64,000 nt of DNA from Sinorhizobium arboris LMG 14919 (GTDB lineage Bacteria > Pseudomonadota > Alphaproteobacteria > Rhizobiales > Rhizobiaceae), in the NCBI RefSeq assembly GCF_000427465.1, contig NZ_ATYB01000008.1:1302001-1366000 (forward strand), written 5' to 3'. Shown here one piece after another: positions 3,459-22,153 of this stretch (positions are counted from its first letter, which is position 1; the number at the start of each line of letters is the position of its first letter). A program made the translations under genes and the position numbers. A model generated the notes under the pieces. It saw only the letters and a list, made by a program, of their open reading frames with translations, was not told the origin of the DNA and made no database searches.

Positions 3459-6086
3459 TCACGCCTCGACCAGCAGGGCGACCGGGAAATCGCGGAGAAT
3501 GTCTGCCACGGCAAGAAGAGGCCGGGTTTCGATGACTTTGCCCGTGGGAAGATTGCGCATGCGCTTGAGTTCGCAATTCTCGGGCCAGGCGAGAAAGGTG
3601 TTGCGCCACAGTTCCGGACGGATGGCCAGGCGGCCGTCCACCGTCTGGCCAAAGACAAGCCGCGGCACCACCGTGAGCGCAAAGCCGTGCTTGCTGCGAC
3701 GCATGAAGGCTGCGGCATGGCGTGAGCCCGGGCCTTCGACGGGCACGGCGCGATACTCGCCTTCTGCAAGACACGCCGCGCCGCGCCCCCGGCGATAGGT
3801 CAGTCCCATCGAGATCAAAGTCTGCTTGCAGTTTTCGAAATCGCTGATCGCCGGCGCTTCGGGCAGACTTGGAAGAGAGGCATGCGGTGAAAAACCGCGG
3901 CGGTTGTCGGGATCGACGAGGGAAAGGTCGACCCGTTCGCTGCCCTGATAGATATCGGGAATGCCGGGCGCGGTGAGCTTCACCAGCGTTTGCGAGAGGC
4001 TGTTGATCAGGCCGGCATGGATGAACGGTCCGGACGTTTTCTCGAAATCGCCGAGGAAAGACCGGTTCTGCCAGTCCAGGAGATCGCCGAGGAAGGCCTT
4101 GATCGCTGCTTCATAGCGCTCGTTCGGATCGTCCCAGCTCGTCCTGAGCTTTGCCTCCCGCAGCGCCTTCACGGCGAAATCGACCATCCGCTCGCGCAGA
4201 AAAATCAGGTCGTCTTCGTCACCAGGAGACGTGATGGGCCAGGCACCGAGCAGGCTCTGATAGAGGAATTGCTCGACCGAAGCGTCCGGTTTCTCACCGG
4301 CTGGGAGTCGGCCCATGCTTTCCGCATTCATCCCGTGCCAGCGGTCCGTCGCTGCGGCCCAGACTTCCGGCGCCTCGCTGACGACGTGGAGGCGGGCGCG
4401 CGCATCCTCCCCCCGCTTGGTGTCGTGCGTGGAGGTTGCCGACAGGCCGTGCGGCATCTGGCTTGCGCGATCCTGCATCATCGCATGGAAGCGGACGACG
4501 CCGCCGGGCGCCCAGAAAGGCGAGGCACCGACCTCGTTCGCCGCAAGATAATCGCCCCTCCGATAGAAGAAGGTGTCTTCGACCGCTTTGGCCATCACCG
4601 CGCCGCTCAGTTGCTGGAAGCGCGTGCGGAATGCGGACCGCAGCTTGCCGTCCGCCGAGTCGGTCGGCGCCCTGAGTGCGGAAACGATCGCTGCGATCTC
4701 GGCGCCGACGTCGGGTGAGCGCGCCGCTGCCTTCGCTGCGATCCCGTCGAGGAGGCGGCTGTCGTGCGCTCCGGGCCCCTGGTCGCCGACATAGGTCCGA
4801 TAGACGGGCAGTGCCGCCGCCAGCTGGCGAATGGCCTCACCGGTCCGCTCGTCCTGATCCGGAGCCCCATCGCCTGTGAAGCCAGCGGCCAGTCCGGTCA
4901 GCCGCCGGACTTCCGTATTGAAATTGCGGCCCAGGACCTGAAGCTTGCATCCCATGACCGCCTCTTCGGCCGCAGATCGCCTCTCCTCGCTTGAAAGCCA
5001 CGAAGACGGAGTGTCGTCGGAAAGAAGATCCGCGAGGGCCGATATGAACTCGTAGCCGGTAGCCCCGTCGACCGGCCAGTCGGACGGCAGCGTTTCGTTC
5101 TCGCCGAGTATTTTCTCGACGAGGATATAGGTGCCGTCGCCGGCCTCCCGGCGGAGCCGGTCGAGATAGCCCCTGGGATCGGCCAGGCCGTCGATGTGGT
5201 CGATCCTGAGCCCATCGATCAGGCCTTCCCGGACGAGGGCGAGCGCAAGCCGGTGGGTATCGGTGAAGACCGCGTCATCTTCGACGCGCATGCCGACGAG
5301 GCCGGCGACCTCGAAGAACCGCCGGTAGCTGAGCTTGTCCCGGGCCGTCCGCCAGCTCATCAGCCGCCAGGATTGCCTTCGATGCAGCCGGTCGAGCTGC
5401 AGCGTGTCTGCGGAGAACCGGGCGAGGGATTGGTCGAGTTCGGCAGCGAGCGATGGCGTCCCGACGACAGAGGCAAGTTCCGCGTGGAACTGTGCGGCGG
5501 TTTTCCATTCTGCCGTGCCGGCGACAGCCGCGATCCTTTCGAGCGCAGCATTGCCGATGCGCGGGATCGCCGCATAGCTGGCGGGATTGAGCGGATAGAG
5601 AGCCTGGTAATATCGAAACGCCAGGCAGCGGTGCTCGTGGTCGTATGCGAGGCGCAGATTGCCGGCTGCGACCTCTTCCTCAAACGACCGCCCGAGGAAG
5701 GGGAGCGTGAGCGGCTCCCGCCAGTCGATGTCGAAATAGTCGGCAAATTCGCTAAGGCGGCCCCATTCGATCACGCTGTGCCACCAGTCATTCTCGAGAT
5801 GCGCGGCCATGTGGTTCGGGACGATGTCCAGCACGAGACCGAGTCCTTCGGCCTTCAGCGCATGAGCGAGCCGGACCAGTCCATCGTAGCCGCCAAGCGC
5901 CGGGTCGATCTCGTTGTAGTCGACGATGTCGTAGCCATGGGTTGACCCCCGGACCGCGGTGAAAAGGGGCGAGGCGTAGAGGTGAGATATGCCGAGCCCG
6001 ACTAGGTGCGGGATCAACTCCACGGCTTTTGCGAAGTCCATCCCGTTGCGGAACTGGAGACGGTAGGTTGCGTCGGGCAGATGCAT
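3459..6086 (-). CDS. treY: Maltooligosyl trehalose synthase
   Basis: A GH13-family enzyme of 875 residues. It isomerises the reducing-end alpha-1,4 bond of maltodextrins to a trehalose alpha-1,1 bond. Visible motifs: the N-terminal TYRLQFRNGMDFAKAV, HLYASPLF, GSTHGYDIVDYNEIDPALGG, DIVPNHMA, the nucleophile region LRIDHIDGLADPRGYL, the acid region ILVEKILGENE, and ATSTHDTKRGED. ATG 6086 is preferred because the conserved TreY N-terminus begins there; a TTG at 6158 would add 24 unconserved residues. The partner treZ and glgX are not in the window, so treY is isolated here. Confidence 0.95.
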   Translation of the reverse strand: MHLPDATYRLQFRNGMDFAKAVELIPHLVGLGISHLYASPLFTAVRGSTHGYDIVDYNEIDPALGGYDGLVRLAHALKAEGLGLVLDIVPNHMAAHLENDWWHSVIEWGRLSEFADYFDIDWREPLTLPFLGRSFEEEVAAGNLRLAYDHEHRCLAFRYYQALYPLNPASYAAIPRIGNAALERIAAVAGTAEWKTAAQFHAELASVVGTPSLAAELDQSLARFSADTLQLDRLHRRQSWRLMSWRTARDKLSYRRFFEVAGLVGMRVEDDAVFTDTHRLALALVREGLIDGLRIDHIDGLADPRGYLDRLRREAGDGTYILVEKILGENETLPSDWPVDGATGYEFISALADLLSDDTPSSWLSSEERRSAAEEAVMGCKLQVLGRNFNTEVRRLTGLAAGFTGDGAPDQDERTGEAIRQLAAALPVYRTYVGDQGPGAHDSRLLDGIAAKAAARSPDVGAEIAAIVSALRAPTDSADGKLRSAFRTRFQQLSGAVMAKAVEDTFFYRRGDYLAANEVGASPFWAPGGVVRFHAMMQDRASQMPHGLSATSTHDTKRGEDARARLHVVSEAPEVWAAATDRWHGMNAESMGRLPAGEKPDASVEQFLYQSLLGAWPITSPGDEDDLIFLRERMVDFAVKALREAKLRTSWDDPNERYEAAIKAFLGDLLDWQNRSFLGDFEKTSGPFIHAGLINSLSQTLVKLTAPGIPDIYQGSERVDLSLVDPDNRRGFSPHASLPSLPEAPAISDFENCKQTLISMGLTYRRGRGAACLAEGEYRAVPVEGPGSRHAAAFMRRSKHGFALTVVPRLVFGQTVDGRLAIRPELWRNTFLAWPENCELKRMRNLPTGKVIETRPLLAVADILRDFPVALLVEA

Positions 6087-15938: not shown

Positions 15939-17888
15939 TCATTCTGACAGCCGTTCCCGCTCGCGCTCGTAATAGCGCGCGAGAGAAGGCAGGTCCTTTT
16001 TCAGCACATCGAACAAACCGTCATCGGCAGCGACCTCGCCGCTGTATTTCCGGGCGAGATAGGCGCGGTGGCGTGCGAGCGCCGGTTCCGAAGCGCCGTC
16101 GACCACGGTGAAGACCGGAGAGACTGCGCTGCGCCCCTTGACGGTGATGCGGTCGAGCTCGGCGACCGGGAATTTCCGGGCGGCGAGTGCTGCCGTACGC
16201 TCTCCGAGAAGCAGCGGCACGCCGTAGTCCTTGGAGGCGCCTTCGAGGCGGGAGGCGAGATTCACCGCGTCGCCCAGCGCCGAATAATCGAAGCGGCGGG
16301 CCGAGCCCATATTGCCGACGACGCATTCTCCCGTGTTGATGCCGATGCCGATCCTCAGCGTCTTCGGCGGACGTCGCGCCCCTTTCGCTTCCGCTTCCAG
16401 CTCTGCGTTCAGACTATTGAGCGCCGTGAGCATGTCGCGCGCCGCCTGAACGGCATGGACGGCATGGTCGGGGTCGTCGAGGGGAGCGTTCCAGAAGGCC
16501 ATCAGGCAGTCGCCGATATATTTGTCGATCGTGCCGCGTCGGTTGAGCACGGCTTCCGAAAGGGGCGTCAGGAGCCGGTTGATCAACGTCGTCAGCCCTT
16601 CCGGATCGTCCTTCATGTCCTCCGAGATGGTGGTAAAGCCGCGTACGTCGCAGAAGAGGACCGTGAGCGTCCGTCTTTCGCCGCCGAGCTTCAATTGCGA
16701 GGGATCGCTTGCAAGCCGCTCCACGAGGGCCGGCGAGAGATATTGCGAGAAGGCACGGGTGATCTCGCGGCGACGCCGTCTTTCTTCCGCATAATCGAGG
16801 CCGGCCTGCCCGACCGCCACGCCAAGAAAGGCAAGTGCCGGGGCGAGCGGCGAGACGAACACGTGGCCGATGCGCATCAGGCCATAGCTTGCAAGGAATA
16901 TCAGAGCGAGGGCGAGGGCGCCGTAACCGAGGGTTTTCCAGCTCGTAGGCCTGAGGACTGCGAGGGCTGCGGCCAGGCTGGCGAGGATGATTGCCGCGAT
17001 GGCGACGGCCGCACCCGCCCGCCTGACGAACAGGCGATGCACGAGATTGTCGTAGATGGTCGCGTGGATTTCGGCGCCGGCGACGCGGCCGCGTGAGAAG
17101 ACCGTGTCGGAGGTGGGGAAGGCATCGACGCCGCCGCCCGCGAGGGACGGCGCGTTCTGCAGGCTCAGGCCCACGATGACGACTCGATCACGGAACATCC
17201 CCTCGGGCAGGAAATTCGCGGGGTCGAGCGCCTGATAATAGGAAACGGTCGGGTAGGTGCGCGCCGGGCCGAAGGTCTGCATCAGGGCCCGTCTCGGGGG
17301 AGGCGCAGGTTCTGCACCAGCGACTGTTGCGAGCGTCACGGCGAAGCCGTCCGGATAGGAGGGTATCTGCCTGAGCGTGCCGTCGCCGCTGAGGTTAACC
17401 GAGGCGATGCCCACCTTCGCGCCCCGTTCCAGCAGGACGGGAAGGGGCTCGGTCCGGACGAACTGCTCGGCCTGCGGCGTCCGGATCAGCGTCTCGTCGC
17501 CGGCAAGCACGACGTCGGGCCCGAGGACCTCGGCAAGCGCGAGATCGTTCTCCGGCGCGACGGCCGGTTCGGCGAAGACCACGTCGAGAGCGATCGCCCG
17601 GGCGCCGGCGGCCCTCAGAGCCTGGATCAGCCGGGCGTGCAGGGCTCGCGGCCAGGGCCATTGGCTGCCGATCTCGGCCATCGACGGTTCGTCGATCGCG
17701 ACGATAACGGGGCCGTCTTCCGGGAGAGCCGGCCGGCCGAGGACCGAGAGATAGTCGTAGGCGCGCAGGTCGGCGAGCGACCAGGAGCCGGTCAGCGAGA
17801 CGAGCGAGACGAGCGCGGCCACGAAGGTCATGAGGACGGCAAGCTTTGCCCGCCGCGGGGAAAGGCGAAACTGGCGAGGGGCGTTCAT
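15939..17888 (-). CDS. CHASE2-domain adenylate cyclase (class III)
   Basis: A 649-residue inner-membrane protein: helix ~15-37, a periplasmic CHASE2 sensor ~40-285, three helices ~290-360, then a class III cyclase domain ~400-600. Catalytic residues are intact: metal Asp414 (FCDVRGFTT) and Asp460 (IGDCLMAF), adenine-choosing Lys456 and Asp534, transition-state Asn543 and Arg547 (VNLASRLE). It should make cAMP in response to a periplasmic cue. Its ATG overlaps the stop of the upstream FecR-TPR-barrel gene (ATGA at 17885-17890 region, minus strand), so an outer-membrane protein and this cyclase are co-translated. Pyrimidine specificity is not suggested. Confidence 0.93.
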   Translation of the reverse strand: MNAPRQFRLSPRRAKLAVLMTFVAALVSLVSLTGSWSLADLRAYDYLSVLGRPALPEDGPVIVAIDEPSMAEIGSQWPWPRALHARLIQALRAAGARAIALDVVFAEPAVAPENDLALAEVLGPDVVLAGDETLIRTPQAEQFVRTEPLPVLLERGAKVGIASVNLSGDGTLRQIPSYPDGFAVTLATVAGAEPAPPPRRALMQTFGPARTYPTVSYYQALDPANFLPEGMFRDRVVIVGLSLQNAPSLAGGGVDAFPTSDTVFSRGRVAGAEIHATIYDNLVHRLFVRRAGAAVAIAAIILASLAAALAVLRPTSWKTLGYGALALALIFLASYGLMRIGHVFVSPLAPALAFLGVAVGQAGLDYAEERRRRREITRAFSQYLSPALVERLASDPSQLKLGGERRTLTVLFCDVRGFTTISEDMKDDPEGLTTLINRLLTPLSEAVLNRRGTIDKYIGDCLMAFWNAPLDDPDHAVHAVQAARDMLTALNSLNAELEAEAKGARRPPKTLRIGIGINTGECVVGNMGSARRFDYSALGDAVNLASRLEGASKDYGVPLLLGERTAALAARKFPVAELDRITVKGRSAVSPVFTVVDGASEPALARHRAYLARKYSGEVAADDGLFDVLKKDLPSLARYYERERERLSE

Positions 17889-20800
17889 CAGAACCGCACT
17901 TTGACGGTGCCCTTGACCGTGGGACCCCAGCCGGGCAGCCCGTCCCGTATCTCGAATTCCTCATCAAGCAGATTGAAGCCGGCGAGCTCCACCTCGATCC
18001 GCTTGTCGAAGGGCTCCCACTGAAGAGCGGCGTCGAGCGTCCAGAAGTCGTCGTGCGTTATCGGACCCTCTGCGCGCTCGCCTACGTAATTTGCGGCAAC
18101 GGTCGTTTTGACGTTGGCCGTGCTCACCCAGGTAAGTGCCAGCTGGCCCGAATATTCGGGAAGGAAGGGAAGGTCGCCGGCGCCGCCTGCCGAGAGGTCC
18201 TCGCTTTCGGTGCGCGCCACCGTCGCCGAAAGACCCAAGCCGTGGCCGAATGCCAGATTGGCGGTCACTGCGAAGCGGTCGAGTCGACCCTTGTCGAAAG
18301 GGAAATCCGTCCTTGCCGCCAGGAAGGGACTGATGATCGGGATGGGTATCGAACCGTCATGAATTTCCTGATGCTGATAGTCGATCGCCGTAAACAGCCA
18401 GTCCGTCCACTCGGCATCCCAACGCAGCGCCAGCGTGTCGGCATAGCCCTCCGTACCGATCAAAAACTGGTTGGGCTGCAGCCCGACTATGCCGACCGGC
18501 GCGAGCGTGGCGGAGCCGAAATTATAACCTTCCCGCTGAACGGCGGCACGGAGCCAGTGACCCTCTGCCGGCGCCCAGGCGACGCCGAGCTTCGGTTCGA
18601 GCCGGACGTCGTTGTTGTTGACATCTTCGATATAGCGGGCGAACAGTGCGCCTTCGATCTTGAGGTCGGGCGTGATTTCATAAAGGCCGTCGACATAGGC
18701 TTTGGCGACGGCTTGCGTAAAATCGAATCGGGTCGGCGCGGCAAAGCTGAAATGCGTCCGCAAGTCCGATTGCACCTTCCCGCCCTCGATGCCATAGCGC
18801 CACGTCAGGTCGCCCTGCCCATACATGTGGTTGAGCGCGGCGATGTAGGTTCGTTCCCTGCTATCCAGATCGAATTCGGTTTGGGTGCCTGCATCGGAGA
18901 GGGCCAGGCTGTCGCCCGTGCGCAATTCCTTGAAGAAGAGGGCGGCATTGCCGACGTTGCGGTAACCGAATGTGTGGCTCCAGGCGAGGCCGGAAATCAG
19001 GCCGGAAGACTCGTCACCCAGTTCGAGGTCCGGCGGAACCGGCAGAAGCTGCTGGAATTCATCGACGTCCGAATAGTTCGCGAAGGCGACGACGCGGTCG
19101 TCGGGAGTGGGGCTGGCCGTGACATAGCCGTTGCCACCGATTACCCGCAGTTCGCGTTCCAGTCGCGCGCCTTCGGATTCGACCGTATCGCGGGGCTCCT
19201 CCCACTGAAAGGTGCCGGAAACGCTGATCGGGAAGGGCGAGACCGTAAAGCCGCGAACCGCCGCTTCCCCGATCCACCCGGTATGATCCTCATTGGCGGT
19301 GAACCCGCCGCCCAACTCCGCTTCGAAGAAGGGAGAACGCAGCAGATTGGCCGTCCGCTCGCGGCTGGCGAGCATGTGCGGTTCGATCAGAAGCCCCTGG
19401 ATGAGCGCGGAAAAGCTGGCCGGATTGACCGTGTTCGTGATCGCGTTCGCTGCGAAATCGTAAGCGTTGAAGAAGGGATTGACGCTGCCGCGGACCGCCT
19501 GGTCGACATAGCTTGCAGCGGTGAAGGGATCGAAGACGGCGTCGCCGTAGTATTGGCCCCAGGCATCCAACCCCTGCAGGCGGAAGGCGTCGTTAAGCGT
19601 CGAGCCCTGCTCCTGGTTGGCGCCGAGTGCCGCCGTGTCGCCGCCCTTGGCGCGGGTGCGGCGCAGGGCTTCCTGAGCGTTGCGAATGGCCGCATCGGCG
19701 TCATAGGCATCGATCGCGATCGCGGTTCTGACCGTCGCCACGACCGGATCGTTCGGATCGAGCCGGTCGGCGTTGTCGAGCGCCTGAGCTGCCGGAATGC
19801 GGTCGCCCTTCTCGTAATGCGCGGCCGCGAGCAGAAGCTGGGCGTTCGAATAGGCAGGGTTGGCCGTCGAGCCGGCGAGCAGGTCTTCGACCGCCTTGTC
19901 GGCCTCGCCGTTCTGCATGTGATAGCGGCCGCGCGCCACCAGCGCCACGTCGAAGGAGGGGTCGACCGAAAGCGCGGCGTCGATCTCCCGCTTCGCCTCG
20001 GCCATCCGCATCTCGTCCATGTATTGAATTGCCAGGTTTGCATGGGAGACGGGATCGAGCGGATCGAGCGCAATGGCCTGCTTGAATGCAGCCTCGGCTG
20101 CCCGGTTGTCGCCGCGCGCGCCCTGTACCAGACCGAGGGAATTCCAGATGGACGAGGAGCCCGGAGCGGTTTTCAGGGCCCTGTTGAGATCCTCAAGGGC
20201 GGCCTCGAGATCGTTGTCGATGTGATAGCGATAATGGGCGCGTGCCTCGAGCGCCGTCGGGTCTTCAGGGTCGATCGAAAGCGCCCGTTCGACGCCGTCG
20301 CGAAGCTCGTCGCGATCATCCAGCAGGAGGGCGAACTGCGCGCGTGCCGCGGGCAGGGTCGGGTCGTCGGGATATTGCTGCTCGGCCTTTTTCATCATCG
20401 CGATCGCCGCAGGGATGTCCTCCCGGAAACCGGCGGTCCAGGCCCGGGCCATGCCCGCATAGCGGCCGCTTGCGTTGCGCGGCGGCTCCTCCACACGGGC
20501 AGGATCGGCGAGCCCGCGCGCAAAATAGCCGCCATAGGCCGCGATCGTGCGGCGGCTCGGGTCGAGGTTGCGTTCGGCCCTCGCGAACAGGCCCGCCGCC
20601 TCCTTATACCGGTTCGAAGAACCGGCGATCAATGCCCTGACGAGGTCGGCACGTGCCGCCTGGGAGCGGGTCAGGCCGCGGCTCGTCGCTTCCGCGAGCG
20701 CGGCCTGAGCCTTGTGACGGCCATCGAGGGAAAGATAAATCTCCGCAAGCGTCAGCCATTCCTCGGCCGAGCGTGATGCTGCCGGCAAGGCCTCGATGCG

Positions 20801-21478
20801 CGCACGCTCGCGGCGCATTTCGGGAACGCTGAAGGGTGTGGCCGGCATCCAGACGAAGGCGTTGCGAAGCGACAGATGAAAGAGCATCTGCTCGCGATCC
20901 TTCGGCGTCACGATCACGATCTTCGTCGGCGCGCTGCCGATCGCGGCAACGGCGCCTTCGCCCTGCTGCACCGTCACGCTGCCATAGGCATTGCTGAGTT
21001 CGACGACCCCTTCGAGGACGACGAGCGAGGTCTTGCCATCGGCACCGACGGTAAGCGTCCAGTCGGTGCCGCGGATGGCGGCGGTTGCGGCAGGCGTGTC
21101 GATCAGCAGGCCCTCGCCACCGCGCTCGGCGCGCGCCCAGATGGTACCTGCCTGCAATTCGAGATTCGAGTCGCCTCCGCCAATCTCCTTGACCCGCAGC
21201 GCGGTGTTTCGCCCGAGCCTTATCTGCGTGTGATCCCGGAAGAGCACGGCGAGCGCACCCGTGGCGTTGGTCCGCAGCACGTCGCCGGGAAGCAGATCCT
21301 GGGCGAGGTCTACGACCCGCCAGTTGGAAACGTCGACAAAGCGGACCTCCTCGCCGGATTTGCGGGCAATGACGGAGCCGGCTGCGGGGGCCGGGCGCGG
21401 AACCGTCTCGGCAAGCGCCCCCAAGGGAGCAACAAGCGTCACCGCGGCAAGCAATGCCCCCGTTCTTCTTCCCCGCAT
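17888..21478 (-). CDS. FecR-TPR-beta-barrel outer-membrane protein (NsrA-like)
   Basis: A 1196-residue exported protein. ATG 21478 follows GAGGGG and begins a signal peptide (cleavage near ALAETV); upstream in-frame starts are unsupported. A FecR-like domain lies at ~30-165 (GDVLRTNATGALAVLFRDHTQI, IRGTDWTLTVG), TPR-type helices at ~225-580 (DPLDPVSHANLAIQYMDE and similar units), and a beta-rich C-terminal half ends GTVKVRF with the terminal Phe of outer-membrane barrels. This layout resembles NsrA of S. meliloti, an outer-membrane protein needed for plant-signal perception upstream of adenylate cyclases (recalled, not checked). It overlaps the CHASE2 cyclase gene, suggesting joint work as a surface sensor. 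Confidence 0.8.
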   Translation of the reverse strand: MRGRRTGALLAAVTLVAPLGALAETVPRPAPAAGSVIARKSGEEVRFVDVSNWRVVDLAQDLLPGDVLRTNATGALAVLFRDHTQIRLGRNTALRVKEIGGGDSNLELQAGTIWARAERGGEGLLIDTPAATAAIRGTDWTLTVGADGKTSLVVLEGVVELSNAYGSVTVQQGEGAVAAIGSAPTKIVIVTPKDREQMLFHLSLRNAFVWMPATPFSVPEMRRERARIEALPAASRSAEEWLTLAEIYLSLDGRHKAQAALAEATSRGLTRSQAARADLVRALIAGSSNRYKEAAGLFARAERNLDPSRRTIAAYGGYFARGLADPARVEEPPRNASGRYAGMARAWTAGFREDIPAAIAMMKKAEQQYPDDPTLPAARAQFALLLDDRDELRDGVERALSIDPEDPTALEARAHYRYHIDNDLEAALEDLNRALKTAPGSSSIWNSLGLVQGARGDNRAAEAAFKQAIALDPLDPVSHANLAIQYMDEMRMAEAKREIDAALSVDPSFDVALVARGRYHMQNGEADKAVEDLLAGSTANPAYSNAQLLLAAAHYEKGDRIPAAQALDNADRLDPNDPVVATVRTAIAIDAYDADAAIRNAQEALRRTRAKGGDTAALGANQEQGSTLNDAFRLQGLDAWGQYYGDAVFDPFTAASYVDQAVRGSVNPFFNAYDFAANAITNTVNPASFSALIQGLLIEPHMLASRERTANLLRSPFFEAELGGGFTANEDHTGWIGEAAVRGFTVSPFPISVSGTFQWEEPRDTVESEGARLERELRVIGGNGYVTASPTPDDRVVAFANYSDVDEFQQLLPVPPDLELGDESSGLISGLAWSHTFGYRNVGNAALFFKELRTGDSLALSDAGTQTEFDLDSRERTYIAALNHMYGQGDLTWRYGIEGGKVQSDLRTHFSFAAPTRFDFTQAVAKAYVDGLYEITPDLKIEGALFARYIEDVNNNDVRLEPKLGVAWAPAEGHWLRAAVQREGYNFGSATLAPVGIVGLQPNQFLIGTEGYADTLALRWDAEWTDWLFTAIDYQHQEIHDGSIPIPIISPFLAARTDFPFDKGRLDRFAVTANLAFGHGLGLSATVARTESEDLSAGGAGDLPFLPEYSGQLALTWVSTANVKTTVAANYVGERAEGPITHDDFWTLDAALQWEPFDKRIEVELAGFNLLDEEFEIRDGLPGWGPTVKGTVKVRF

Positions 21479-21503
21479 TTCCGAAATACCCCTCGCAATA
21501 GTG

Positions 21504-21516
21504 AATCCAGTGGATT
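21504..21516. promoter_or_regulatory. Perfect palindrome upstream of nsrA-like gene
   Basis: AATCCAGTGGATT is a perfect 13-base palindrome 26 bases upstream of the start at 21478, within the 129-base divergent region. It could be an operator for the minus-strand operon. The binding protein is unknown. No clear TGTN8ACA-type cAMP-receptor site was seen in this region. Confidence 0.35.
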
Positions 21517-21537
21517 TATAGGGAGGAAAAGTCAAGT

Positions 21538-21551
21538 GCCCAGTTTTGGGC
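21538..21551. promoter_or_regulatory. Inverted repeat GCCCA-N4-TGGGC in divergent region
   Basis: GCCCA (21538-21542) and TGGGC (21547-21551) form a perfect short inverted repeat midway between the NsrA-like gene and the PycTM-like gene. It may be an operator shared by both directions. Confidence 0.3.
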
Positions 21552-21607
21552 GTATGCTTTTACTGGCGGAGTGTAATAAAGAGGAGACGAATAGAGGGGA
21601 GTGGCGG

Positions 21608-22153
21608 ATGGAAGCAGGGGGAAATCTGTATAGGCTCGATCCTCCAAGTGAAGGAGCGGCGCCGGAGGCGATGCTGGGGGCCTATTACGACCACATCAGG
21701 AAGGTAAATGATGTCTTTGCCGATCAGATAAAGACATCCGATCAGAAAGCCGCCTATATATTCACTTTCATGTTCGCTTTTCTGGTGACGTCGCAAGAAG
21801 GGCGCAGTGTCTTTGCCTGGCAGCGCTATGCGGAGGGCAGCACCATCCCGATGGTGTTCTCGGCTATGCTTGCGCTTGCCTCGATCTTCTCGATCGTGTC
21901 GGCGATCCTCGTGGTCCTGCCCAGGAAAAGCGCAACCTCGACGACGCTGTTCTGGGGCGCCTGGTCCCGTCATCGGGAGAGCTTCATGCGGGCAGCAGGG
22001 GCTGGCGATCGGGCTTATCTTTTCCGCCAATATGCCGAGAACGCGGACGCGCTTGCGGCGATCGCCTGCGGCAAATACCGTTGCGTCAGCTTCGCCTTCC
22101 GCGGGCTGCTCGTAACGGTGCTTTCCTATATCTGCCTTCTGGCGGTGAAGTGA
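21608..22153 (+). CDS. PycTM-like (DUF5706/SLATT-type) membrane protein, possible Pycsar-like effector
   Basis: A 181-residue protein, ATG 21608 behind GAGGGGAG. A short soluble N-terminus with an amphipathic helix (YYDHIRKVNDVFADQIKTSDQKA) leads into helix ~48-62, helix ~80-105, a ~55-residue cytoplasmic linker rich in charged residues, and a third helix ~164-180 at the very end. The DxK-A start of the first helix, the 2+1 helix layout and the size match the PycTM effector family (DUF5706), whose members open the membrane when bound by a cyclic nucleotide. It is divergent from a class III cyclase operon, which supports a cyclic-nucleotide link. The assignment is by eye, without a profile search. 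Confidence 0.55.
   Translation: MEAGGNLYRLDPPSEGAAPEAMLGAYYDHIRKVNDVFADQIKTSDQKAAYIFTFMFAFLVTSQEGRSVFAWQRYAEGSTIPMVFSAMLALASIFSIVSAILVVLPRKSATSTTLFWGAWSRHRESFMRAAGAGDRAYLFRQYAENADALAAIACGKYRCVSFAFRGLLVTVLSYICLLAVK

What the first reader, a model, noticed from the sequence alone, without database searches (positions are those of the whole stretch)
15939..22153. Outer-membrane sensor, CHASE2 adenylate cyclase and a PycTM-like effector in one locus
A FecR-TPR-beta-barrel protein (17888-21478) is co-translated with an intact class III adenylate cyclase carrying a periplasmic CHASE2 sensor. A divergent 181-residue protein has the helix layout of the PycTM effector of the Pycsar anti-phage system. 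Known Pycsar systems use a soluble pyrimidine cyclase; here the cyclase has adenylate-type residues (Lys456, Asp534) and is membrane-bound. This could be a surface-sensing system that gates a membrane effector by cAMP, a link between symbiotic signal perception and Pycsar-type effectors not described to my knowledge.
Basis: partly seen in the sequence, partly recalled or inferred. Interest (0 to 1): 0.85.

Follow-up and report, generated by a model that had tools for sequence, protein, structure and literature searches.

The report
Pycsar-family effector beside NsrA–CyaK receptor
A membrane protein from a bacterial anti-virus effector family sits, and has been kept across a whole bacterial family, next to the receptor and cyclase genes that rhizobia use to sense a plant signal, which suggests an overlooked membrane output of that signalling pathway.

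Summary
The locus is real and two of its three genes are already known. The FecR-TPR-barrel gene and the CHASE2 cyclase gene are nsrA and cyaK, the plant-signal receptor and adenylate cyclase of Sinorhizobium (PMC5498481, PMC7529298). The divergent 181-residue protein is a genuine PycTM-family member (PF18967, E 2.3e-11, over the cut-off; 41 of 41 homologues scanned match).

New is that this PycTM gene is a conserved third member of the locus. Of 80 homologues kept from named genomes, 79 lie beside a CHASE2 cyclase: 73 with NsrA, 6 (all Shinella) head-to-head with the cyclase alone. In one of the 73, PycTM and cyaK are consecutive on one strand, 52 bp apart. In 200 related genomes PycTM and CyaK occur together in 51, PycTM alone in 1, CyaK alone in 6. 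Pycsar-like loci in the same family are sporadic; 5 of 6 lie near soluble PycC-type cyclases.

Best explanation: a membrane effector downstream of CyaK's cyclic nucleotide. Gating by cAMP is inferred, not shown; killing is unlikely. It is not a standard Pycsar system by the tests made. I found no paper linking PycTM to CHASE2 cyclases or NsrA, in a limited library.

The parts
15939..17888 (-). cyaK orthologue: CHASE2 receptor-type class III adenylate cyclase, 649 aa
   Evidence: Pfam CHASE2 and Guanylate_cyc; next gene to nsrA annotated cyaK in S. meliloti ml28 pSymB; active-site residues D414, K456, D460, S536, N543, R547
17888..21478 (-). nsrA orthologue: FecR - TPR - predicted outer-membrane beta-barrel protein, 1196 aa; stop overlaps the cyaK start (TGATG)
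   Evidence: Pfam FecR and TPR; 85.6% identical to the pSymB protein of S. meliloti 1021 and to the gene annotated nsrA in CP140934.1; overlap read
21479..21607 (.). divergent promoter region with conserved blocks (AATCCAGTGGATT palindrome 21504-21516; AAAGTCAAG 21528-21536; GCCCAGTTTTGGGC 21538-21551)
   Evidence: Intergenic sequences of 32 genus loci; AAAGTCAAG upstream of PycTM in 69 of 80 named loci, in 0 of 80 regions after one base shuffle each
21608..22153 (+). PycTM-family (PF18967, DUF5706) membrane protein, 181 aa, three hydrophobic segments
   Evidence: Pfam E 2.3e-11 and PADLOC PycTM E 3e-15; hydropathy; AlphaFold2 model pLDDT 74.5, helices 19-61, 79-103, 119-132, 135-180

Best explanation
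The window holds the nsrA-cyaK receptor-cyclase operon of a Sinorhizobium, together with a divergently transcribed PycTM-family gene that is an inherited third component of the same signalling locus. Shown here: the identities, the PycTM family membership, and the conserved linkage to the cyclase. Published: NsrA and CyaK pass an outside protein signal (free ribosomal protein uL2 is the candidate) to cAMP. Inferred: the PycTM protein is a membrane output of that pathway. Cyclic nucleotide made by CyaK (most likely cAMP) would act on the cytosolic helices of PycTM and change the state of the inner membrane, alongside the known transcriptional output through Clr. The effect is probably regulatory rather than lethal, since an S. 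meliloti strain making cAMP was reported not to grow more poorly.
For: Linkage to the cyclase: of 52 PycTM loci in 200 relatives (window included), 46 carry the full triad, 2 the cyclase alone, 1 is cut by a contig end inside nsrA, 3 have neither. Of 80 loci from named genomes (a set that overlaps the first), 79 lie beside a CHASE2 cyclase. PycTM follows the cyclase rather than the barrel: 6 Shinella loci have cyclase and PycTM head-to-head without nsrA; L188 has PycTM then cyaK on one strand 52 bp apart with nsrA on the opposite strand; 9 of 9 barrel-gene loci read that lack a cyclase have no PycTM. Co-occurrence: both in 51, PycTM only 1, CyaK only 6, neither 142 of 200 genomes; by genus 20/1/6/128, Fisher 6e-19 without correction for phylogeny. 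One complete genus member (G015) lacks all three. Purifying selection on PycTM like that on its partners, median dN/dS 0.150 against 0.151 (cyclase), 0.130 and 0.142. PycTM and cyclase tree distances correlate, r 0.87, n 83. In Pycsar, PycTM is the receptor of the nucleotide made by the partner class III cyclase (PMC11224242 passages).
Against: I found no binding, membrane or genetic data for this PycTM. PycTM without a cyclase within about 7-8 kb occurs in 4 places (L039, L051, L052, L192); G100 has no CyaK-type cyclase at E 1e-60. The nsrA-cyaK pair without a linked PycTM occurs in 7 of the 17 loci (in G119 and G152 a PycTM lies elsewhere in the genome). PF18967 is a broad family: in 11 other genomes of the class its 12 loci matched none of my CHASE2 or cyclase queries at E 0.01, some stretches being cut by contig ends, so family membership alone does not imply nucleotide gating. 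One S. medicae copy is frameshifted beside intact nsrA and cyaK.
Confidence: 0.5

Rival explanations
1. The PycTM protein is not an output but an accessory subunit or regulator of the NsrA-CyaK complex, for example a brake on CyaK in the inner membrane, and needs no nucleotide ligand.
For: Tight linkage with a membrane-bound cyclase in three gene arrangements; similar purifying selection.
Against: In Pycsar-like loci of the same family, PycTM accompanies soluble cyclases, where a membrane subunit role is less natural; 4 PycTM copies lie away from any cyclase found.
Confidence: 0.2
2. It is a surface-triggered defence or danger-sensing variant of Pycsar: NsrA detects protein released by lysed cells, CyaK makes cAMP, and PycTM alters the membrane to protect the cell or stop phage.
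For: PycTM family; crude extracts of E. coli, S. meliloti itself and yeast activate NsrA-CyaK, as does purified E. coli uL2 (PMC7529298 passages); the triad occurs in Gellertiella and the cyclase-PycTM pair in Shinella, as well as in named rhizobia.
Against: Present in 32 of 33 genomes of the genus (one copy frameshifted); strong purifying selection; neighbours are transport and metabolic genes: of four scanned against PADLOC two had no hit and the two ABC transporter ATPases matched only models that I take for general ATPase matches (best mad3, E 7.7e-21); making cAMP did not reduce growth in S. meliloti (PMC5498481 passage).
Confidence: 0.12
3. PycTM is a membrane protein of unrelated function that stays next to nsrA because the two share a divergent promoter region.
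For: Conserved blocks in the intergenic region; PycTM genes without a detected cyclase beside unrelated genes exist in other families.
Against: Where nsrA is not at the locus (Shinella), PycTM stays with the cyclase, and in L188 it sits directly before cyaK, without the AAAGTCAAG block; an outer neighbour is not kept (GntR found at only 15 of 52 loci).
Confidence: 0.12

Closest known systems
NsrA-CyaK pathway of Sinorhizobium meliloti (autoregulation of infection)
   Same: Orthologous genes in the same order: NsrA 85.6% identical to S. meliloti 1021; CyaK is the next gene in the annotated S. meliloti ml28 record.
   Different: The passages I read of the papers on it do not mention the divergent PycTM gene. 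The 2018 NsrA paper could not be read.
Pycsar (PycC + PycTM)
   Same: PycTM-family protein encoded beside a class III nucleotide cyclase.
   Different: The cyclase is a CHASE2 membrane receptor with adenylate-cyclase residues, not a soluble pyrimidine cyclase; the locus is near-fixed in the genus rather than sporadic; no anti-phage or pyrimidine evidence.
Clr, the cAMP-dependent transcription regulator of S. meliloti
   Same: Known cAMP output of CyaK, CyaD1 and CyaD2 (PMC5498481 passages).
   Different: A DNA-binding protein encoded elsewhere; PycTM would be a membrane output encoded at the receptor locus.

Membership tests
PycTM / PF18967 (DUF5706) | Scores above the curated family cut-off | tested here: met
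   44.5 bits against 27.2; 41 of 41 homologues match PF18967 at E 0.01 or better; profile comparison with 9 other PycTM proteins 96.4% probability, E 1.2e-9
PycTM / PF18967 (DUF5706) | Residues shared with the other PycTM proteins, and membrane segments | tested here: met
   Of five residues invariant in 9 other PycTM proteins (A28, K31, P84, R85, K152), K47, P105 and K156 are invariant and R106 nearly so in both of my alignments, while A28 aligns with S44, which is Ser or Ala; hydropathy peaks at 51-69 (weak), 86-104, 162-180
Pycsar system | PycC-type soluble pyrimidine cyclase | tested here: not met
   Architecture differs: CHASE2 domain and predicted membrane helices. Only the catalytic core matches PycC models (88.5 bits, residues 402-550). 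That score alone does not separate: of three soluble cyclases from Pycsar-like loci two score 326 and 718 bits but one only 73.7. R547 and S536 are kept where two of these cyclases have Lys and Val; K456 is Ser in one and Lys in the other. Nucleotide preference itself was not testable
Pycsar system | PycTM or PycTIR gene next to the cyclase gene | tested here: met
   79 of 80 named loci; in 72 of them the long nsrA gene lies between the two
Pycsar system | Sporadic defence locus (recalled expectation) | tested here: not met
   32 of 33 genus genomes carry it, one frameshifted; PycTM and cyclase tree distances correlate; annotated neighbours are transport and metabolic genes
Pycsar system | Effector answers cCMP or cUMP; protects from phage | not testable with these tools
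   Needs purified protein and phage assays
NsrA-CyaK receptor-cyclase pair | FecR-TPR-barrel protein overlapping a CHASE2 cyclase gene, orthologous to the named genes | tested here: met
Class III adenylate cyclase | Two metal Asp, Lys, Asn and Arg of the active site (roles recalled) | tested here: met
   D414, D460, K456, N543, R547 invariant in 90 of 90 homologues; the second base-specifying position 536 is Ser in 88 and Thr in 2
SLATT effector families | Pfam SLATT match | tested here: not met
   Only PF18967 matched up to E 1

The most novel reading that the evidence does not exclude
NsrA-CyaK-PycTM is an ancestral Rhizobiaceae danger-sensing system: the outer-membrane receptor detects free ribosomal protein released by lysed neighbours (phage, predators or stressed plant cells), cAMP rises, and a PycTM-family membrane effector puts the cell in a protected or quiet state. 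Legume symbiosis later reused the sensor to limit further infection. To my knowledge it would be the first PycTM-type effector driven by cAMP and by an extracellular signal.
Probability: 0.12. Interest if true: 0.92.

Novelty: new variant of a known kind. Interest (0 to 1): 0.7.

Why it matters
NsrA-CyaK is a studied way in which rhizobia read a plant signal, and the only output of it that I met in the passages read is transcription through Clr. A conserved partner from an anti-phage effector family points to a second, membrane output that a single deletion in a laboratory strain can test. It would also show that PycTM-type effectors serve ordinary cAMP signalling and are not confined to pyrimidine-based defence, which affects how defence-finding tools label such genes.

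Tried and rejected
Pycsar defence island: rejected as a label, because the cyclase has a different architecture and the locus is near-fixed. Asp534 as a specificity residue: rejected on alignment. PADLOC scores as proof that CyaK is no PycC: dropped, because one soluble cyclase from a Pycsar-like locus scores lower than CyaK. Clr box in the divergent promoter: the published consensus HGTYHCNNNNGRWACW was not found in the window intergenic region (best 3 mismatches); among the genus loci listed, one came within 1 mismatch, the others 2 or 3 (list cut at 12 forms). Solved PycTM structure: none found by sequence (one hit at E 0.96). PycTM in viral contigs: no relative. One of my own promoter patterns matched nothing (0 of 80) and was dropped. 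The AATCCAGTGGATT palindrome as a regulon marker: one exact site in the genome, and 31 places with one mismatch against 4 for the reversed control pattern, not followed further. NsrA-type proteins elsewhere in the class: 2 of 372 genomes including the window's own, but at most two candidates per genome were scored, so this is weak. Rows dropped: L064 and L078 were left out of dN/dS, 60 random pairs were drawn and only those with dS between 0.05 and 2.5 kept (55 for PycTM, 60 for the others); of 178 relatives found the tool kept the best 80; of 12 second barrel copies in the genus I read 6.

Full report
What is there. The cyclase has a CHASE2 sensor domain and a class III catalytic domain; the 1196-residue protein has FecR and TPR matches, with only a very weak Pfam hit for the barrel (E 0.29); the 181-residue protein matches Pfam PF18967 (PycTM, Pycsar effector) at E 2.3e-11 and 44.5 bits, above the curated cut-off of 27.2, and two PADLOC PycTM models, best E 3e-15. 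No other PF18967 match at E 0.001 was found in the 6.85 Mb genome. The stop of the barrel gene overlaps the start of the cyclase gene by one base, TGATG.

The sensing half is known. The barrel protein is 85.6% identical to a protein on pSymB of S. meliloti 1021, and in S. meliloti ml28 (CP140934.1) the matching gene is annotated nsrA, the next one cyaK, and the divergent one 'DUF5706 domain-containing protein'. The small protein is 93.9% identical to its S. meliloti 1021 counterpart. CyaK is SMb20776 (PMC5498481, passages read). NsrA and CyaK are required for the response to plant 'signal 1', for which free ribosomal protein uL2 is the candidate; crude extracts of E. coli, S. meliloti and yeast are also active (PMC7529298, passages). 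A 2026 paper gives the same outline (PMC13001267, passages).

The PycTM gene is a lasting part of the locus. A protein search of 200 related genomes found homologues in 52, including 32 of the 33 members of the genus, one of them frameshifted. Around these 52 loci, 46 have cyclase and barrel gene on the other side of a short divergent region, 2 have the cyclase alone, 1 is cut by a contig end inside nsrA, and 3 have neither within about 7 kb. An outer neighbour, the GntR gene, is found at only 15 of the 52 loci, so the trio is the conserved unit. In a scan of named genomes, which overlaps the first set, 178 relatives were found and the best 80 kept; 79 of 80 lie beside a CHASE2 cyclase. Of these, 72 have the window's arrangement. 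Six, all Shinella, have PycTM and cyclase head-to-head without nsrA between them. One (L188) has PycTM followed by cyaK on one strand, 52 bp apart, with nsrA on the opposite strand beyond it. One (L192) has no cyclase or barrel gene found. In the plasmid collection PycTM matches occur in 72 records, of Sinorhizobium (65), Rhizobium (5) and Neorhizobium (2).

PycTM follows the cyclase rather than the barrel. Nine of nine barrel-gene loci read that lack a cyclase have no PycTM (six of the twelve second copies in the genus, plus three others). Seven loci have barrel and cyclase but no adjacent PycTM, and one (G043) only a weak PycTM match. Across 200 genomes PycTM and CyaK occur together in 51, PycTM alone in 1, CyaK alone in 6, neither in 142; by genus 20, 1, 6 and 128 (Fisher 1.4e-39 and 6.3e-19, not corrected for shared descent). 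In two of the 51 (G119, G152) PycTM and cyclase are unlinked, and in one (G117) the contig ends. One complete genome of the genus, G015, lacks all three genes. Median dN/dS in the genus is 0.150 for PycTM and 0.151, 0.130, 0.142 for cyclase, FecR-TPR part and barrel part. Tree distances of PycTM and cyclase correlate at r 0.87 for 83 loci, and Shinella is one clade in both; shared species history alone could give much of that.

It differs from Pycsar-like loci in the same family. PF18967 finds 57 of 200 genomes at E 0.001, 56 above the cut-off. Six loci lie outside the NsrA-linked group; five have a soluble PycC-type cyclase near and one none found. In PADLOC, three cyclases from these loci match PycC models with 718, 326 and 73.7 bits, and the two effectors scanned match best a '2TM effector' model and next PycTM, E about 1e-29. 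In the class as a whole PF18967 occurs in 12 of 385 genomes including the window's own; the other 12 loci in 11 genomes matched none of my CHASE2 or cyclase queries at E 0.01, some stretches being cut by contig ends. So the family is broad, some members seem solitary, and the name PycTM alone does not prove nucleotide gating.

The cyclase is of adenylate type. Aligned to solved class III cyclases, the metal residues are D414 and D460, the base-specifying pair K456 and S536, and the transition-state pair N543 and R547 (the roles are recalled family knowledge). All but S536 are invariant in 90 of 90 homologues; S536 is Ser in 88 and Thr in 2. Two soluble cyclases from Pycsar-like loci have Val at the S536 position and Lys at the R547 position; at the K456 position one has Ser and the other Lys, so Lys456 alone does not rule out another substrate. 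CyaK's core scores 88.5 bits to one PycC model, more than one of those soluble cyclases does; the clear difference is architecture. The papers cited above treat CyaK as an adenylate cyclase.

The small protein. Hydropathy gives strong membrane segments near 86-104 and 162-180 and a weaker one near 51-69. AlphaFold2 on 41 sequences gives mean pLDDT 74.5 and pTM 0.62, all helical: 19-61, 79-103, 119-132 and 135-180 in the main. The alignment is shallow and the model is moderate. Highly conserved polar residues lie in the first long helix (N34, D39, Q40, D45, Q46, K47) and in the last (N145, K156, Y157), candidates for a ligand or contact site (inference).

The shared promoter region has conserved blocks: AAAGTCAAG upstream of PycTM in 69 of 80 named loci, including all six Shinella but not L188 or L192, and in 0 of 80 regions after one base shuffle each; an AGTGT-N12-ACACT repeat in 44 of 80. 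No Clr box was found in the window region.

How it most likely works. Shown: gene identities, family membership, lasting linkage to the cyclase. Published: NsrA and CyaK raise cAMP on an outside protein signal. Inferred: PycTM is a membrane output of that nucleotide. A lethal pore of the Pycsar kind is unlikely for cAMP in these cells, since a strain making cAMP did not grow more poorly (PMC5498481 passage; that this strain carries the PycTM gene is inferred from the species). Rivals are a regulator of CyaK, a danger-sensing or defence role, and mere promoter sharing; the last is weakened by Shinella and L188.

What is in print. Searches of the held library: 'Pycsar' with 'CHASE2', 0 papers; 'DUF5706', 0; 'Pycsar' with 'rhizobi', 2, seen as a listing with abstract starts only and unrelated by these; SMb20773 to SMb20777, 1 paper, for SMb20776 only; 'PycTM' with 'cyclase', 4 listed, one read in passages; two broader Pycsar searches, listings only apart from passages of PMC9117128; NsrA searches, 7 and 4 papers listed, of which passages of PMC7529298, PMC13001267 and PMC9927233 were read. 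The library lacks most subscription journals, and the 2018 NsrA paper was not held, so an earlier remark on the neighbour gene cannot be excluded. That the neighbour would be SMb20774 is my guess from numbering.

Noticed in passing
L131 8001-8542 (same locus as L078), S. medicae USDA1037: The PycTM gene is split by a frameshift while nsrA and cyaK match without stops. Two S. meliloti records (CP130047, CP130056) also show split PycTM matches, but there nsrA is split too, which suggests sequencing errors.
   Followed up: partly
window 21504-21516: Perfect palindrome AATCCAGTGGATT between nsrA and PycTM, present exactly in 24 of 32 genus loci and the only exact match to AATCCRSYGGATT in the genome; a likely operator for an unknown regulator.
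   Followed up: partly
L098, L099, L100, L106, L107, L108: A second NsrA-like protein, 40-44% identical, is present in 12 of 33 genus genomes; the six copies read have no CHASE2 cyclase match nearby.
   Followed up: no
L111 1303-2067, L112 7502-8293, L113 7504-8316: Pycsar-like loci in Rhizobiaceae with a large PycC-type cyclase, a protein of 254-270 residues with a conserved Cys/His-containing stretch, and PycTM in a row; the middle gene was not identified.
   Followed up: no
L215, L216, L217 at 4950-5498: Three genomes of another family carry a PycTM gene in the same place before the same two genes, with no cyclase match nearby, which suggests a non-defence role for some PycTM proteins.
   Followed up: no
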